Shown one piece after another: positions 2,381-7,327 of a stretch of 64,000 bases of DNA; the first letter of the stretch is position 1; each line of letters starts with the position of its first letter. Both the position numbers and the translations under genes were made by a program. The notes under the pieces are model-generated. The model was given only the letters and a program-made list of their open reading frames with translations. It had not been told where the DNA came from and did not search any database. This stretch comes from Aliihoeflea sp. 2WW (lineage in GTDB: Bacteria > Pseudomonadota > Alphaproteobacteria > Rhizobiales > Rhizobiaceae), in NCBI RefSeq assembly GCF_000497755.1, contig NZ_AYOD01000013.1, positions 1 to 64,000 on the forward strand, given 5' to 3'.

Positions 2381-2769
2381 TTCAGCGTGTCTCCGCGAAA
2401 GCCGAAGGGCAGGATTTCGGCCATGGTGACCGTCTCGACGATGCCGTTCTGGTCGCACAAATGCAGCTTGGTCTGCGGATCGGCGAACTCGGCGAGCCGC
2501 TGGCGGCAGCCGCCGCAGGGCGTGATGCGATCCATCTTCTCGGCGACCACGGCGATCTCGGCCAGCTTGCCGCCGCCGGCCATGACATAATGGCCGAGGG
2601 CGGTCGTCTCGGCGCACCAGCCTTCCGGATAGGACGCGACCTCGATGTTCGCGCCGGTGAAGACGCGGCCATCGGTCGTCAAAAGCGCCGCGCCGACCGG
2701 GAATTTCGAATAGGGCGCATAGGCATGCGCCATCGCCGCGCGGGCGGCGGCGAAGAGGTCCTTCGACAT
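2377..2769 (-). CDS. cdd: Cytidine deaminase
   Basis: It deaminates cytidine and deoxycytidine to uridine and deoxyuridine in pyrimidine salvage. The 130-residue length fits the small homotetrameric zinc-dependent class. Visible active-site parts are Asn41-Ile-Glu43, Cys52-Ala-Glu54 (zinc ligand and catalytic glutamate) and the Pro-Cys85-Gly-Gly-Cys88 zinc pair. The start overlaps the stop of the upstream permease gene by one base and the stop overlaps punA by four, placing it firmly inside the nucleoside transporter operon. Confidence 0.95.
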   Translation of the reverse strand: MSKDLFAAARAAMAHAYAPYSKFPVGAALLTTDGRVFTGANIEVASYPEGWCAETTALGHYVMAGGGKLAEIAVVAEKMDRITPCGGCRQRLAEFADPQTKLHLCDQNGIVETVTMAEILPFGFRGDTLK

Positions 2770-3743
2770 CACCGCTCCTTCACATATGGCACGCCGCCGG
2801 CGCGTGGTGGGATGGCCTTGCCGATGAAGCCGGCGAGGAGGATGACGGTGAGCACGTAGGGCAGCGCCTGCATGAACTGCGTCGGCACCGGCCCGATGAT
2901 CGGCAGGGGCGAGCCCTGAAGGCGGATCGAGACGGCGTCGAGGAAGCCGAAGAGAAGGCAGGCGAACATGGCCGGCACCGGCTTCCATTTGGCGAAGATG
3001 AGCGCGGCGAGCGCGATGTATCCACGGCCGGCCGTCATGTCCTTCACGAACCCCGCGCCAAGGCCCATCGAAAGATAGGCACCGGCAAAGCCGCACAGGA
3101 TGCCGGTGCAGATGACCGCGCGATAGCGCAGCCACGTTACCGAGATGCCGGCGGTGTCCACGGCGGCCGGGTTTTCGCCGACTGCGCGCAGGCGCAGGCC
3201 GAAGCGCGTGCGGAACAGGACCCACCAGGTGAAGGCGACGGTCGCGAAGGCGAGATAGACGAGCATCGAATGGCCGGAGATCAGCTCGTAGTAAATGTAG
3301 CCGACGACCGGGACTTCGCGCAGCTCCTGCGCGAAGGGCAGGTGGACGCCGGTGAAGCGCGTTTCGGCGGAGAGCGACGGCGTGCGCCCGCCTTGCGCGA
3401 ACCAGGCCTGGCCGAGAATGACGGTGGTGCCCGCGGCGATGAAGTTGATGGCGACGCCCGAGACGATCTGATTGCCGCGATTGGTGATCGAGGCGAAGCC
3501 GTGGACGAGCGCCAGCGCGACCGAGACCATGACGGCGAAGCAAAGGCCGATCCACGCCGAGCCATAGACGGCGGCTGCCGCTGCACCGGCGAAGGCGGCG
3601 GCCAGCATCTTGCCCTCAAGGCCGATGTCGAACACGCCGGCGCGCTCGGAATAAAGACCGGCGAGGCAGGCGAACATCAGCGGAATCGACAGGCGGATGG
3701 TAGAGTCCAGAATCTGGATCAGGACGACGAAGGCTTGATCCAT
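2769..3743 (-). CDS. BMP-type nucleoside ABC transporter permease, second subunit
   Basis: This 324-residue integral membrane protein belongs to the branched-chain-like permease family (BPD_transp_2; NupQ/YufQ-like). It is hydrophobic throughout, with about eight membrane segments. The motifs SERAGVFDIGLEGKMLAAAF near residues 32-51 and the later LRAVGENPAAVDTAG coupling region are typical. It lies directly after the larger permease with a one-base gap and before cdd, so the heterodimeric pore is encoded together. Substrate assignment (nucleosides) rests on the salvage enzymes in the same operon. Confidence 0.9.
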   Translation of the reverse strand: MDQAFVVLIQILDSTIRLSIPLMFACLAGLYSERAGVFDIGLEGKMLAAAFAGAAAAAVYGSAWIGLCFAVMVSVALALVHGFASITNRGNQIVSGVAINFIAAGTTVILGQAWFAQGGRTPSLSAETRFTGVHLPFAQELREVPVVGYIYYELISGHSMLVYLAFATVAFTWWVLFRTRFGLRLRAVGENPAAVDTAGISVTWLRYRAVICTGILCGFAGAYLSMGLGAGFVKDMTAGRGYIALAALIFAKWKPVPAMFACLLFGFLDAVSIRLQGSPLPIIGPVPTQFMQALPYVLTVILLAGFIGKAIPPRAGGVPYVKER

Positions 3744-3744
3744 C

Positions 3745-4884
3745 TCAGGCTCCCTTCTGGCCGGCGGCTTCGCCCGCGCCGGAGCGCGGCGAGATCGAGG
3801 CGAACAGCGCCTGCAGGGATGGCCGGAACATATGCTCCAGCGCGCCGGCGAAGAGGATCACCAGGCCCTGGATGATGATGATCATGTCGCGGCTGATCGA
3901 GGGCATCATGAAGGCGATTTCCGCGCCGCCCTGATAGAGCACGCCGAAGAGGATCGCCGCCGGGATGATACCGGCCGGATGCGAGCGGCCCATCAGCGCC
4001 ACTGCGATGCCGACGAAGCCGGCGCCGGTGACGAAATCGAGTTGCAGCCGGTTGGCGTCGCCCATCACGGGGTTCAGCGCCATCATGCCGGCCAGCGCGC
4101 CGGAAATCAGCATGGTGACGAGCACGATCCGCGTCTCGCCGATGCCCGCATAACGCGCCGCCTTCGGGCTAAAGCCTTGCGTGCGGATCTCGTAGCCGAG
4201 CTTCGTGCGCCAGATTAGGAGCCAGACGAGGAAAGCGGCGAGCAACGCCAAAAGGAAGGAGATGTTGAGCGGCGAGGACCGCACCGAGGCGCCGAACCAG
4301 TCGAAGACGAAGTTCAGCTTCGGCAGTTGCCCGCCATCGAGGAAGGTGCGGGTCTGCGGCGACATCGAGCCGGCCGGTTTCAGGACGGTCGTCAGGAGAT
4401 AGACCATCAGGCTGGCGGCGATGAAGTTGAACATGATCGTCGTGATGACGATGTGCGAGCCGCGCTTGGCCTGAAGATAGGCGGGGATGAACGCCCAGAG
4501 CGCACCCATCAGCGCCGCGCCGAGGATCGCCAGCGGGAAGTTGATCCACCAGGGCAGGATGCCGTCGAGCGACAGGCAGACGAGCGCGACGCCCAGCCCG
4601 CCGACATAGGCCTGCCCCTCGCCACCGATGTTGAACAGGCCGCCATGGAAGGCGACCGCGACGGCGAGGCCGGTGAAGATGAAGCTGGTCGCATAATAGA
4701 GCGTGTAGGCAATGTTCTGCCCGCGCCCGAACGCACCCTCGATCAGGTAGGTAAAGGCCTCGACCGGGCTTTCGCCGACCAGAAGCACCACGAGCCCGGC
4801 CACCGCGAAGGCCACGACGACATTGATCAGCGGGATCAGCCCGTAATCGGCCCAGGCGGGCAACTTCGCATAAGGTACGCTCAT
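3745..4884 (-). CDS. BMP-type nucleoside ABC transporter permease, first subunit
   Basis: A 379-residue permease of the NupP/YufP type in the same family as its neighbour. It has an N-terminal membrane segment (residues 15-38), the motif FNIGGEGQAYVGGLG near residue 90 and the coupling region YEIRTQGFSPKAARYAGI in the second half. The ATG at 4884 overlaps the stop codon of the GIY-YIG gene by four bases. The 14 bp ending at that overlap also occur at the end of the ATPase gene. The simplest reading is that ATPase and permease were once directly coupled. Confidence 0.9.
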   Translation of the reverse strand: MSVPYAKLPAWADYGLIPLINVVVAFAVAGLVVLLVGESPVEAFTYLIEGAFGRGQNIAYTLYYATSFIFTGLAVAVAFHGGLFNIGGEGQAYVGGLGVALVCLSLDGILPWWINFPLAILGAALMGALWAFIPAYLQAKRGSHIVITTIMFNFIAASLMVYLLTTVLKPAGSMSPQTRTFLDGGQLPKLNFVFDWFGASVRSSPLNISFLLALLAAFLVWLLIWRTKLGYEIRTQGFSPKAARYAGIGETRIVLVTMLISGALAGMMALNPVMGDANRLQLDFVTGAGFVGIAVALMGRSHPAGIIPAAILFGVLYQGGAEIAFMMPSISRDMIIIIQGLVILFAGALEHMFRPSLQALFASISPRSGAGEAAGQKGA

Positions 4885-4894
4885 TCGGCGGCCT
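4881..4894. repeat. 14-bp direct repeat, left copy, flanking GIY-YIG gene
   Basis: The sequence TCATTCGGCGGCCT (plus strand) is identical to 5795-5808. On the minus strand it encodes the last residues (Ala-Ala-Glu-stop) of the GIY-YIG protein and the first base of the permease start. It looks like a duplicated insertion junction. Confidence 0.85.
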
Positions 4895-5798
4895 GTCGAT
4901 CTTCTTGATGGGATTTCAGCGTTCGATTCATTTCTGCCACCATCCAGCTTGTGCGCCCATTGGCATTTCGACCATAGATGACAGCAGCAGCAGCACTCGG
5001 ACTGGCGAACAAAACGTCTTCCTCAAAAACGAGAAACGTATTGTCACTATTGGGAACGAGCTTTCTTTCATGTCTCAACCGCTCACGAAGCGACGCGTAT
5101 TGATTCATGGCAAACTCAGGGCTCAACTCGGCAAGCGATCCCTTCCGGACGATTATTTCACCGTCGCGCTCGACGGCTGTCGCATGTAAACCCTTTCGAC
5201 TTGGCCTCAGCACAAGCGGCACTATTTCAGTTTTTGTCTCGTTCTCTCGCACAACCTCTTTACTGCTGATGCTTGGCGGGACAAACTTATCACGAAGAAT
5301 GTCAAATCCTAAAACTGGCAATACTAATCGAATCTGCTCGACGAAGTACTCCATATCGGCGACATCAGACTCAGAAAGTATACCTACTGCTGGGTCAATT
5401 ACGTTTTGAACGTAAGCCCGACCCGAATTCCGCGCGAGATTTGACAAACGATTTTCCAAGAAGCGCGCATGTGCCTTTGTGAGGTTCAGATCCTTGCTTG
5501 TGATAATGCAGAATTTTTCAAATTCTCGATCTTCATTCTTGGAATGCTGAAGAATTCGCCGACCCACGTTGTCGCTTTCGCCAACATAGACCGGTCGTGG
5601 ATCTCCAATCTGCACAATGTCGCCAAAGAGCAGATAGACTCCTGTCTTTTGTGCCTCGGCGCGCTGCATCACTTCGGCAAGGCGTGATCGGGGGGCAAGG
5701 AGCAAATGGCCCGTCCAATTAACGACCTCAGCCGTCATCACGCCATTGGGAACGCCGTCCACCAAGAACAGTCTAACCGAACGGCCAGGCGCAATCAT
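4881..5798 (-). CDS. GIY-YIG nuclease-fold protein with DUF4357 tail
   Basis: This 305-residue protein has a GIY-YIG nuclease fold at about residues 50-130. The GVY...VYVGES core is present, the arginine in VGRRILQH is the expected catalytic Arg, and the glutamate in LENRL is the expected metal-binding Glu. The C-terminal part (about 200-290) matches DUF4357, including the ending FASPSAAAAVIYGRNANGRTSW. The gene is visibly A+T-richer than its surroundings (22 G/C in the 60 bases at 5281-5340). It interrupts the nucleoside ABC operon with ATGA overlaps on both sides and a 14-bp direct repeat. A recent insertion is likely. Its cellular role is unknown; related proteins are suspected in DNA processing or defence. 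Confidence 0.85.
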   Translation of the reverse strand: MIAPGRSVRLFLVDGVPNGVMTAEVVNWTGHLLLAPRSRLAEVMQRAEAQKTGVYLLFGDIVQIGDPRPVYVGESDNVGRRILQHSKNEDREFEKFCIITSKDLNLTKAHARFLENRLSNLARNSGRAYVQNVIDPAVGILSESDVADMEYFVEQIRLVLPVLGFDILRDKFVPPSISSKEVVRENETKTEIVPLVLRPSRKGLHATAVERDGEIIVRKGSLAELSPEFAMNQYASLRERLRHERKLVPNSDNTFLVFEEDVLFASPSAAAAVIYGRNANGRTSWMVAEMNRTLKSHQEDRQAAE

Positions 5799-5808
5799 TC
5801 GGCGGCCT
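5795..5808. repeat. 14-bp direct repeat, right copy, flanking GIY-YIG gene
   Basis: This copy is identical to 4881-4894. On the minus strand it encodes the last residues (Ala-Ala-Glu-stop) of the ABC ATPase and overlaps the start codon of the GIY-YIG gene. Confidence 0.85.
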
Positions 5809-7327
5809 CCTTGCCGTCGATGCCGGCCATCAGGAGGCCGAGTTCGCCTTCGGTCGCTTCGCCGGAGCGCTCGCCGACCACGCGGCCGTCGAACATCACC
5901 AGTATGCGGTCGGAGAGCGAGCGGATTTCGTCGAGTTCGACCGAGACGAGCAGGACCGCCCTGCCCTGGTCGCGCATGTCGATCAGGCGCCTGTGGATGA
6001 ATTCGATCGCGCCGACGTCGACGCCGCGCGTCGGCTGGCCGATGATGAGGACGCCGGGGTCCTTTTCCATCTCGCGCGCGAGCACGATCTTCTGCTGGTT
6101 GCCGCCGGAGAAATTCGCCGTCTTCAACCGCTCGTTGCCGGGACGGATGTCGTATTGCCCGATCTTTTTCTTCGCATCGGCGCGGATCGCCTCGATGTTG
6201 AGGAACGGGCCGTTCAGATATTCGGGCCGGTCGTGATAGCCGAGGATCGAGTTTTCATATTCCTCGAACGGCAGGACGAGGCCGACATAGTGCCGGTCCT
6301 CCGGCACATGGGCGAGGCCGCGGTCGCGCAATTCGCCCGGATCGGCCGCGCCGGTGACGTCGATGGGCTTGCCGTCGAGCATGACGGTGCCGGAGACGGC
6401 CGGGCGGATGCCGGAAATCGTCTCCAGAAGCTGCGACTGGCCATTGCCGGCAACGCCCGCGATGCCGACAATTTCGCCGCCGCGCACGTCGAAGGAGACG
6501 TCATCGACGACTTTGACGCCGCGCGAGTCCACGACCGTGAGATTGCGCACCGAGAGCTTCACGTCGCTCGGCCGCGCATCGCCCTTTTCGACGCGCAGGA
6601 GCACGCGGCGGCCGACCATCAGCTCGGCCAGTTCCTCAACCGTCGTCTCGGCGGTCTTGCGCGTCGCGACGATCTGGCCCTGGCGCATGACCGAGACATT
6701 GTCGGTGATCGCCTTGATCTCACGCAGCTTGTGCGTGATCAGCACCACTGTCTTACCCTCGGCGCGGAGCTGGGCGAGGATGCGGAAAAGGTGGTCTGCC
6801 TCCGCCGGCGTCAAAACGCCGGTCGGCTCGTCGAGGATCAGAATATCGGCGCCGCGGTAGAGCGCCTTCAGGATTTCGACACGCTGCTGCAGGCCGACGG
6901 GCAGGTCCTCGATGATCGCATCGGGATCGACGTCGAGGCCGTATTCCTTCTCCAGCCGCTTCAGTTCCGAGCGGGCCTTGGAGATGGACGAGTTGAGCAG
7001 CGCCTCGCCTTCGGCGCCGAGGATGATGTTTTCCAGCACGGTAAAATTCTGAACCAGCATGAAATGCTGGTGCACCATGCCGATGCCAAGCGCGATCGCG
7101 TGGTTGGAGCTAGTGATCGCCACCGGCTTGCCGCCAACTCGGATTTCGCCGGAATCGGCCTGATAGAAGCCGTAGAGGATCGACATCAGCGTCGATTTCC
7201 CGGCTCCGTTCTCGCCGACGATACCGTGAATGGTGCCGGCCTTGATGTTGAGGTCGATATCCTTGTTGGCATGAACCGGGCCGAAGCTCTTGTTGATGCC
7301 GACAAGTTCGATCGCAGCTTCGGACAT
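5795..7327 (-). CDS. BMP-type nucleoside ABC transporter ATPase (double domain)
   Basis: This 510-residue cytoplasmic ATPase has two fused nucleotide-binding domains, as in NupO/YufO and sugar ABC ATPases. The first half has Walker A GENGAGKST (residues 38-46), the signature LPVGLQQRVE and Walker B ILILDEPTGVLTP. The second half has a degenerate Walker A (GVAGNGQSQ), the signature FSGGNQQK and a glutamine-containing IIGQPTRGVD Walker B, the usual asymmetry of this class. The ATG at 7327 is preferred over an in-frame TTG ten codons upstream because the protein then begins at the conserved N-terminus. It is the first gene of the leftward operon. Confidence 0.92.
   Translation of the reverse strand: MSEAAIELVGINKSFGPVHANKDIDLNIKAGTIHGIVGENGAGKSTLMSILYGFYQADSGEIRVGGKPVAITSSNHAIALGIGMVHQHFMLVQNFTVLENIILGAEGEALLNSSISKARSELKRLEKEYGLDVDPDAIIEDLPVGLQQRVEILKALYRGADILILDEPTGVLTPAEADHLFRILAQLRAEGKTVVLITHKLREIKAITDNVSVMRQGQIVATRKTAETTVEELAELMVGRRVLLRVEKGDARPSDVKLSVRNLTVVDSRGVKVVDDVSFDVRGGEIVGIAGVAGNGQSQLLETISGIRPAVSGTVMLDGKPIDVTGAADPGELRDRGLAHVPEDRHYVGLVLPFEEYENSILGYHDRPEYLNGPFLNIEAIRADAKKKIGQYDIRPGNERLKTANFSGGNQQKIVLAREMEKDPGVLIIGQPTRGVDVGAIEFIHRRLIDMRDQGRAVLLVSVELDEIRSLSDRILVMFDGRVVGERSGEATEGELGLLMAGIDGKEAAE

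What the first reader, a model, noticed from the sequence alone, without database searches (positions are those of the whole stretch)
4881..5808. GIY-YIG/DUF4357 gene cleanly inserted in a nucleoside ABC operon, flanked by a 14-bp direct repeat
The repeat TCATTCGGCGGCCT is present at 4881-4894 and 5795-5808. The ATPase and the GIY-YIG protein therefore end in the same residues (Ala-Ala-Glu-stop), and both ATGA overlaps with neighbouring starts are preserved. The gene is much A+T-richer than its surroundings. Removing one repeat and the insert would restore a direct ATPase-permease ATGA junction. This is a traceless single-gene insertion that exploits a stop/start overlap, as homing or defence genes might do. 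No transposase is present.
Basis: partly seen in the sequence, partly recalled or inferred. Interest (0 to 1): 0.75.

Follow-up and report, generated by a model that had tools for sequence, protein, structure and literature searches.

The report
Restriction-type genes inserted in nucleoside operon
A candidate phage-defence nuclease gene has been slipped, without a transposase of its own, into the few bases where two nucleoside-transporter genes overlap, and related bacteria have put other restriction-type genes into that same spot several separate times, so an ordinary operon joint seems to serve as a docking site for defence genes.

Summary
A 14-bp repeat flanks a 914-bp insert. Three of five same-genus genomes lack the gene and carry the predicted single copy. 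The gene matches PADLOC's phage-defence candidate PDC-S14 (E 2e-101): a GIY-YIG nuclease domain with conserved catalytic residues plus DUF4357.

The event is not unique. Of 28 sampled genomes of the family with a near full-length copy, 8 have it at this ATPase/permease junction, as does an Oceanicella. In a second genus of ten species, two 41%-identical PDC-S14 genes sit there, in species with ~95%-identical transporters, with 24- and 21-bp local repeats; a third has a BglII-type R-M there, seven are empty. BglII-type R-M follows the same ATPase in two further genera.

Best reading: repeated capture of restriction-type genes at a translation-coupling overlap, resembling 'insertion with long target duplication'. 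The duplicated overlap gives both genes a start, though only a weak ribosome site for the permease in the window. Homing is possible but not needed, since unrelated genes use the site. The insertion enzyme, defence activity and excision are untested.

The parts
4881..5798 (-). PDC-S14 gene: N-terminal GIY-YIG nuclease domain (about residues 18-135) + C-terminal DUF4357 (238-294), 305 aa
5795..5808 (-). upstream copy of the 14-bp repeat AGGCCGCCGAATGA: ATPase C-terminus Ala-Ala-Glu-stop with the start of the inserted gene
   Evidence: single copy in three empty relatives
4881..4894 (-). downstream copy of the 14-bp repeat: C-terminus and stop of the inserted gene with the start of the permease
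4895..5794 (-). unique part of the insert (900 bp; 914 bp with one repeat), 50% G+C
   Evidence: absent in G001, G002, G003
5806..5812 (-). Shine-Dalgarno-like AAGGAGG in the last ATPase codons, 7 nt before the start of the inserted gene (before the permease start in empty relatives)
   Evidence: read directly; of 110 ATPase ends read, 38 have AAGGAGG, 49 another GGAGG, 15 GGAAG, 8 none of these; 94 of 110 end Ala-Ala-Glu
5795..7327 (-). ABC transporter ATPase (sugar/nucleoside type, two ABC domains), upstream neighbour
3745..4884 (-). ABC transporter permease 1 (BPD_transp_2), downstream neighbour
2769..3743 (-). second ABC permease of the operon (weakly similar to permease 1); followed by ORFs that resemble cytidine deaminase, purine nucleoside phosphorylase and thymidine phosphorylase (names recalled from sequence, not searched)
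   Evidence: conserved beside the junction in G001-G004

Best explanation
The gene is a single-gene restriction-type defence candidate (PDC-S14). It was captured recently, without a transposase of its own, at the 4-bp ATGA overlap between the ATPase and permease genes of a nucleoside-type ABC operon. The insertion duplicated the local overlap (14-24 bp in the clear cases). One copy supplies the ribosome site and start of the newcomer, the other supplies the newcomer's last codons and the overlap with the permease start, so the operon stays translationally linked. The same junction has been filled repeatedly by different restriction-type genes (at least two separate PDC-S14 lineages and a BglII-type R-M). 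Shown: insertion, empty sites, local repeats, recurrence, separate origin of alleles. Inferred: that short-homology or illegitimate recombination makes the insert, that selection for intact coupling fixes its exact position and frame, that the gene is expressed from the operon, and that it works as a restriction nuclease.
For: Empty sites with one repeat copy in 3 of 5 same-genus genomes. Synonymous differences of the two alleles in that genus are saturated (pS 0.78) against 0.25-0.28 in the adjoining genes, so the alleles were acquired separately or one replaced the other. In genus g180, 10 junctions were read: 7 empty, 2 PDC-S14, 1 R-M. The two PDC-S14 genes are 41% identical, their ATPases and permeases 95% and 96%; their repeats (24 and 21 bp) start at the same base, and each extends past ATGA with the permease start that follows it (GCGCGC or GTG). 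Tree of 55 proteins: the junction label needs 3 changes, at least 2 forced by well-supported branches, 0 of 500 shuffles as low; one clade of 7 rows (100/98) is entirely at the junction. Repeats of 14 bp or more flank 4 of 9 junction genes and 0 of 45 others, one further contig-edge artefact (L046) set aside. G531 and G580 share a 79%-identical protein between ATPases 73% and permeases 68% identical. BglII + MT-A70 R-M directly after the same ATPase in 3 genera and inside the operon in a fourth. [quoted passage not shown]
Against: Five of nine junction PDC-S14 genes have no repeat of 14 bp or more, so duplication is inferred for them. L074 (G438) lies on a branch flagged as long, so its place in the tree is unsure. 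For the R-M the repeat is weak evidence: its methylase ends Ala-Ala-Glu in 16 of 16 copies read outside the operon. The motif GAGGCNGCNGARTGA also occurs at three other places in the genome, two of them clear coupled gene joints, so part of the similarity may be convergence on a coupling signal. In the window the downstream copy keeps only a weak ribosome site (CAGG), so coupling is not fully preserved there. Transfer through flanking homology could explain part of the spread. Beyond the family, none of 29 loci of the order search and none of 10 of the class search lay beside this transporter. No experiment supports defence; in one panel of 100 Pseudomonas aeruginosa strains PDC-S14 was spread in phage-susceptible strains (57% of 14; PMC10855318, passages).
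Confidence: 0.66

Rival explanations
1. Homing: the GIY-YIG protein itself cuts the uninterrupted ATPase/permease junction and is copied in by break repair.
For: GIY-YIG domain with conserved catalytic residues. A clade of 7 of 7 members sits at this junction in several genera. Gene and flank divergence disagree in both directions (G531/G580 and G000/G004), as for a gene moving into a fixed site.
Against: Unrelated R-M genes and distant PDC-S14 genes use the same site. Most copies in the family sample lie elsewhere (20 of 28; flanks of up to 1.5 kb read). The protein scores on defence-candidate models, and DUF4357 also occurs in Type IV restriction enzymes. Break repair from a homologous donor does not by itself explain local direct repeats (inference).
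Confidence: 0.14
2. Hotspot spread by flanking homology: few original insertions, later exchanged between species by homologous recombination in the conserved ATPase and permease genes.
For: The permease is found in 342 of 394 genomes of the family sample. Close relatives have 88-93% identical flanks. One clade is confined to the junction. The last codons are similar in G000, G004 and G496.
Against: Gene closer than flanks in G531/G580, with flanks only about 70% identical in DNA. The repeats of G438 and G718 match each one's own permease start. It does not explain how two PDC-S14 lineages and an R-M each first arrived at the same base.
Confidence: 0.3
3. Convergent coupling signal: the repeats are not duplications; unrelated genes independently evolved the same Lys-Glu-Ala-Ala-Glu-stop end because it embeds AAGGAGG before an ATGA start.
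For: Four copies of the motif in the genome against 0 for the reversed control, two at other clear coupled joints. The MT-A70 methylase ends Ala-Ala-Glu at unrelated places.
Against: Identity over 24 and 21 bp, including free third positions and bases beyond ATGA that match the adjoining permease start. Only 1 of the 46 non-junction PDC-S14 genes (L082) ends Ala-Ala-Glu.
Confidence: 0.1
4. Ancestral operon gene lost many times by recombination between the repeats, diverging fast.
For: Direct repeats allow clean loss; the gene is patchy in its genus.
Against: Saturated synonymous divergence between same-genus alleles beside close flanks; different lineages at one site within one genus; A+T-rich composition.
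Confidence: 0.04

Closest known systems
Insertion with long target duplication of R-M genes (Nobusato et al. 2000; Furuta et al. 2010; both known here only through citing passages and reference lists)
   Same: Restriction-type genes inserted with direct repeats of the target.
   Different: Here the site is one exact translation-coupled gene overlap inside a housekeeping operon, filled repeatedly by different genes. That pattern was not met in the paper searches (listings and starts of abstracts).
PADLOC PDC-S14 phage-defence candidate
   Same: Best model match E 2.4e-101 over residues 4-301. [quoted passage not shown]
   Different: In the window it sits alone in a nucleoside-type transport operon.
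GIY-YIG nucleases (UvrC, Eco29kI; I-TevI by recall)
   Same: GIY-YIG core, conserved Tyr55, Tyr71, Arg81, Glu115, Asn132; UvrC domain Z 6.0-6.4, Eco29kI Z 3.8, and a plant Grx domain Z 8.5.
   Different: Carries a DUF4357 domain; lies between genes rather than in an intron; its direct neighbours are transporter genes, not a methylase; cleavage unknown.
Defence hotspots between conserved genes (recalled, no call)
   Same: Variable defence cargo at a fixed chromosomal address.
   Different: The address is a 4-bp stop/start overlap inside an operon; the defence-type inserts read hold one or two genes and no integrase gene was seen in them.

Membership tests
PDC-S14 (PADLOC defence candidate) | significant match to PDC-S14 models over the full length | tested here: met
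   E 2.4e-101, residues 4-301 of 305 (this tool gives no PADLOC cutoff)
PDC-S14 (PADLOC defence candidate) | protects against phage | not testable with these tools
   needs a plaque assay
GIY-YIG nuclease superfamily | catalytic Tyr, Tyr, Arg, Glu, Asn in order | tested here: met
   Y55, Y71, R81, E115, N132 invariant in 44 sequences (the catalytic assignment is recalled)
GIY-YIG nuclease superfamily | GIY-YIG fold / profile match | tested here: met
   the top seven matches are a plant Grx domain (Z 8.5; GIY-YIG by recall) and six UvrC GIY-YIG entries (Z 6.0-6.4), then Eco29kI (3.8); the next, unrelated rows are at 3.4 or less. Against: the tool warns that Z under 8 may be only a common arrangement; Foldseek alone had no hit at E<=0.001; the window protein is below Pfam's cutoff (14.5 vs 22.6 bits); 13 of 44 relatives match at E<=0.01
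Homing endonuclease gene | cuts the empty target site and is copied in | not testable with these tools
   no cleavage data
Homing endonuclease gene | one lineage confined to one target site | tested here: inconclusive
   7 of 7 in the clade, but other lineages and an R-M share the site
Insertion with long target duplication | direct repeats flank the insert, single in relatives | tested here: met
Insertion with long target duplication | no transposase in the insert | tested here: met
   the PDC-S14 gene fills the 914-bp insert; antisense ORFs not searched; no terminal inverted repeat of 11 bp or more
Insertion sequence / transposon | transposase and terminal inverted repeats | tested here: not met
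BglII-type R-M (L122 insert in G638) | BglII endonuclease and MT-A70 methylase genes | tested here: met
   E 5e-41 and 3e-28

The most novel reading that the evidence does not exclude
Translation-coupling overlaps of the form AAGGAGGCNGCNGAATGAG act as docking sites. Because ribosome site, stop and start are packed into about 20 bp, and unrelated genes (the transporter ATPase, the MT-A70 methylase family, at least one PDC-S14 gene elsewhere) carry the same end, short-homology recombination between overlaps lets one- or two-gene defence cassettes enter and leave operons cleanly, without a recombinase of their own and with coupling largely preserved.
Probability: 0.22. Interest if true: 0.82.

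Novelty: new variant of a known kind. Interest (0 to 1): 0.62.

Why it matters
Single-gene defence systems are abundant, but how they settle in chromosomes without integrases is poorly understood (general knowledge, no call). Here one operon joint, conserved across a bacterial family, has been filled by separate restriction-type lineages, with empty relatives and local repeats that record the event. That makes the insertion mechanism and the role of translational coupling testable in close relatives, and suggests that housekeeping operons, not only defence islands, should be searched for defence genes.

Tried and rejected
Foldseek against PDB with the whole model gave no match at E<=0.001; the GIY-YIG assignment rests on VIA-align, on the invariant residues and on 13 of 44 Pfam matches. 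The PDB profile search gave only a weak hit to intron-associated endonuclease 1 (E 0.64). Rfam found nothing in 4600-6100 at gathering scores. Plasmid records (48) and phage records (2) hold relatives under 60% identity, and one scan of viral contigs gave 16 loci at 30-44%; no close donor was found there.

Idea dropped: that the R-M at the junction is a circular permutation of a methylase-endonuclease unit. Endonuclease-methylase order also occurs on a Roseomonas plasmid, so the order is no proof. Idea weakened: that the R-M's repeat is a target duplication, since that methylase family natively ends Ala-Ala-Glu. The repeat alone as evidence: rejected, because 14-mer pairs are common in this window. 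The contig-edge artefact L046 was set aside. A small nine-row gene tree put the Oceanicella row inside the window's clade with weak support (39/57, 41/72); I rely on the 55-row tree.

Limits: junctions read are not a random sample. One search found the permease in 342 genomes and listed 150 matches, best first; I read 110 of these 150 (5 own genus + 25 + 80), plus targeted ones. Context was read for 20 of 27 R-M methylase hits, one of which (G638) was the query itself. Of 40 genomes with any PDC-S14-like hit, only the 28 at E<1e-23 enter the count. Synonymous saturation differs between G+C-rich flanks and the A+T-rich insert, so pS values are compared qualitatively.

Full report
What is there. 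On the minus strand the window holds a nucleoside-type ABC operon: ATPase (5795-7327), the candidate gene (4881-5798), permease 1 (3745-4884), permease 2 (2769-3743), then ORFs that look like nucleoside-salvage enzymes (enzyme names and 'nucleoside-type' recalled). The 14-bp sequence AGGCCGCCGAATGA ends both the ATPase and the candidate gene, and in each case the last four bases ATGA are stop and next start. The insert is 50% G+C between neighbours of 63-65%.

Is the repeat more than chance? Not by itself: 19 exact 14-mer pairs (13 separate repeats, this one included) lie 100-2000 bp apart in this window, 3.9 on average in 20 Markov shuffles. The decisive evidence is comparative. Of five genomes of the genus, G001, G002 and G003 have no gene here and carry the overlap once; the junction predicted by removing insert and one repeat matches them at 75, 77 and 75 of 80 positions. 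G004 has a gene at the same base, with an 18-bp repeat.

The gene. It matches PADLOC's PDC-S14 phage-defence candidate models (best E 2.4e-101) and Pfam DUF4357 (7e-15). All 44 aligned relatives match DUF4357, 13 match GIY-YIG and 12 match RAMA at E<=0.01. Tyr55, Tyr71, Arg81, Glu115 and Asn132, the expected GIY-YIG active-site order (recalled), are invariant in 44 sequences. The predicted structure (mean pLDDT 90.8) aligns over about residues 18-135 with UvrC GIY-YIG domains (Z 6.0-6.4) and a plant Grx domain (Z 8.5); whole-model Foldseek gave no significant hit, and the window protein alone is below Pfam's GIY-YIG cutoff. DUF4357 is also reported in GmrSD Type IV restriction enzymes and with GIY-YIG domains (PMC4619093, passage). 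PMC10855318 (passages) describes PDC systems as unvalidated candidates found by guilt-by-embedding, says PDC-S14 overlaps GAO_29, restriction-like, and found PDC-S14 spread in phage-susceptible strains (57% of 14). A restriction nuclease is the best guess; activity is untested.

Recurrence at one base. Of six loci from named genomes, two are at the junction, that Aureimonas and an Oceanicella. Outside: 0 of the 29 loci fetched from the order search besides the window (one has an ABC ATPase of only 24-28% identity nearby), and 0 of 10 from the class search. In the tree of 55 proteins, seven junction members form one clade (100/98) and G438 and G718 fall elsewhere (G438 on a long branch); the label needs three changes, at least two forced by well-supported branches.

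Independent arrivals. In genus g180, ten junctions were read: seven empty, two with PDC-S14, one with R-M. The two PDC-S14 proteins are 41% identical while their ATPases and permeases are 95% and 96% identical. Their repeats are 24 and 21 bp, begin at the same A of AAGGAGG, and each continues past ATGA with the permease start that follows it, GCGCGC in one and GTG in the other. In the window's own genus the two alleles are 77% identical with saturated synonymous sites (pS 0.78) between genes at pS 0.25-0.28. Conversely G531 and G580 share a 79%-identical protein between ATPases of 73% and permeases of 68%, though synonymous sites of the gene are saturated there (pS 0.83). So the gene has a history of its own, yet lands at one place. 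Repeats of 14 bp or more flank 4 of 9 junction genes; of the other 46 loci none has one, apart from a contig-edge artefact.

A different system at the same place. In G638 the insert is a BglII-type endonuclease (E 5e-41) plus an MT-A70 methylase (3e-28). A search with that methylase (27 of 388 genomes at E<=1e-50, G638 among them) and reading 20 of the 27 contexts found it directly after the same ATPase also in G681 and G480, and in G475 between an isochorismatase-like gene and the permease (no ATPase seen there). Metabolic genes use the joint too: of 110 junctions read, 87 have no insert, 5 PDC-S14, 1 R-M, 15 glyoxalase and/or isochorismatase genes, 2 other. The 15 inserts among the 80 later loci show no repeat longer than 8 bp; the two glyoxalase inserts L123 and L124 were not measured. 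These 110 are not a random sample.

How it probably works. The empty joint in this genus is AAGGAGG-7 nt-ATGAG: a strong ribosome site inside the last ATPase codons and a stop/start overlap (seen directly). Of 110 ATPase ends read, 87 carry GGAGG there (38 as AAGGAGG) and 94 end Ala-Ala-Glu. After insertion the first copy starts the newcomer in frame; the second copy ends it and starts the permease. Any insert that keeps both frames and both starts leaves the operon working, so selection could fix exactly such products (inference). In the window the second copy keeps only part of the ribosome site, in G438 and G718 all of it. The molecular route is not shown. [quoted passage not shown] Unrelated genes share this coupling end: the motif GAGGCNGCNGARTGA occurs four times in the genome (reversed control 0), two others at clear coupled joints, and the MT-A70 methylases end Ala-Ala-Glu in 16 of 16 other contexts read. 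This cuts both ways: it weakens the R-M repeat as proof of duplication, and it offers a short shared sequence at which recombination could occur.

Rivals and verdict. Homing by the GIY-YIG protein remains possible for the seven-member clade but does not explain the R-M or the other PDC-S14 genes. Spread through flanking homology is likely for part of the pattern. Pure convergence and ancestral retention fit poorly. I call it a new variant of a known kind: insertion of restriction-type genes with target duplication and no transposase of their own, aimed here at a translation-coupled overlap in a housekeeping operon. Searches of the open library (listings and starts of abstracts; passages of six papers) showed no description of this junction; most subscription papers are not held.

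Noticed in passing
L123, L124, L139, L158, L161, L166, L168-L170, L183, L185, L190, L192, L196, L208: Glyoxalase-like and/or isochorismatase-like genes sit between the same ATPase and permease in 15 of 110 junctions read, without long repeats in the 13 loci where this was measured; they may be true operon members or older inserts.
   Followed up: partly
L261, L263 (own genome G000): The end Glu-Ala-Ala-Glu-stop with an ATGA overlap recurs at two other coupled joints (downstream ORFs resembling a branched-chain amino acid ABC ATPase and a phosphonate-operon gene, by eye), as if it were a stock translation-coupling signal.
   Followed up: partly
L253 (G475): No ATPase is seen at its usual place in this 10-kb stretch; the order is glyoxalase-like - isochorismatase-like - BglII-type R-M - permease, a rearranged operon with an R-M inside.
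   Followed up: partly
L082 (G644): A PDC-S14 gene outside the transporter whose upstream reading frame and own end are both Glu-Ala-Ala-Glu-stop with ATGA; nearest relative in the tree of the G718 junction gene (91/80).
   Followed up: partly
L057 / L257 (Aureimonas psammosilenae) and L252 (G681): An extra ORF (glyoxalase-like in L057; similar start by eye in G681) lies between the inserted defence gene(s) and the permease, so the defence genes entered directly after the ATPase whatever gene follows.
   Followed up: partly
L189 and L205: Two junctions hold a longer ORF of unknown family (about 285 aa, signal-peptide-like start by eye) between ATPase and permease.
   Followed up: no
L259 (Roseivivax plasmid pTHAF40_e): The related MT-A70 methylase and BglII/BstYI endonuclease are convergent there rather than in one operon, another arrangement of the same pair.
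   Followed up: no
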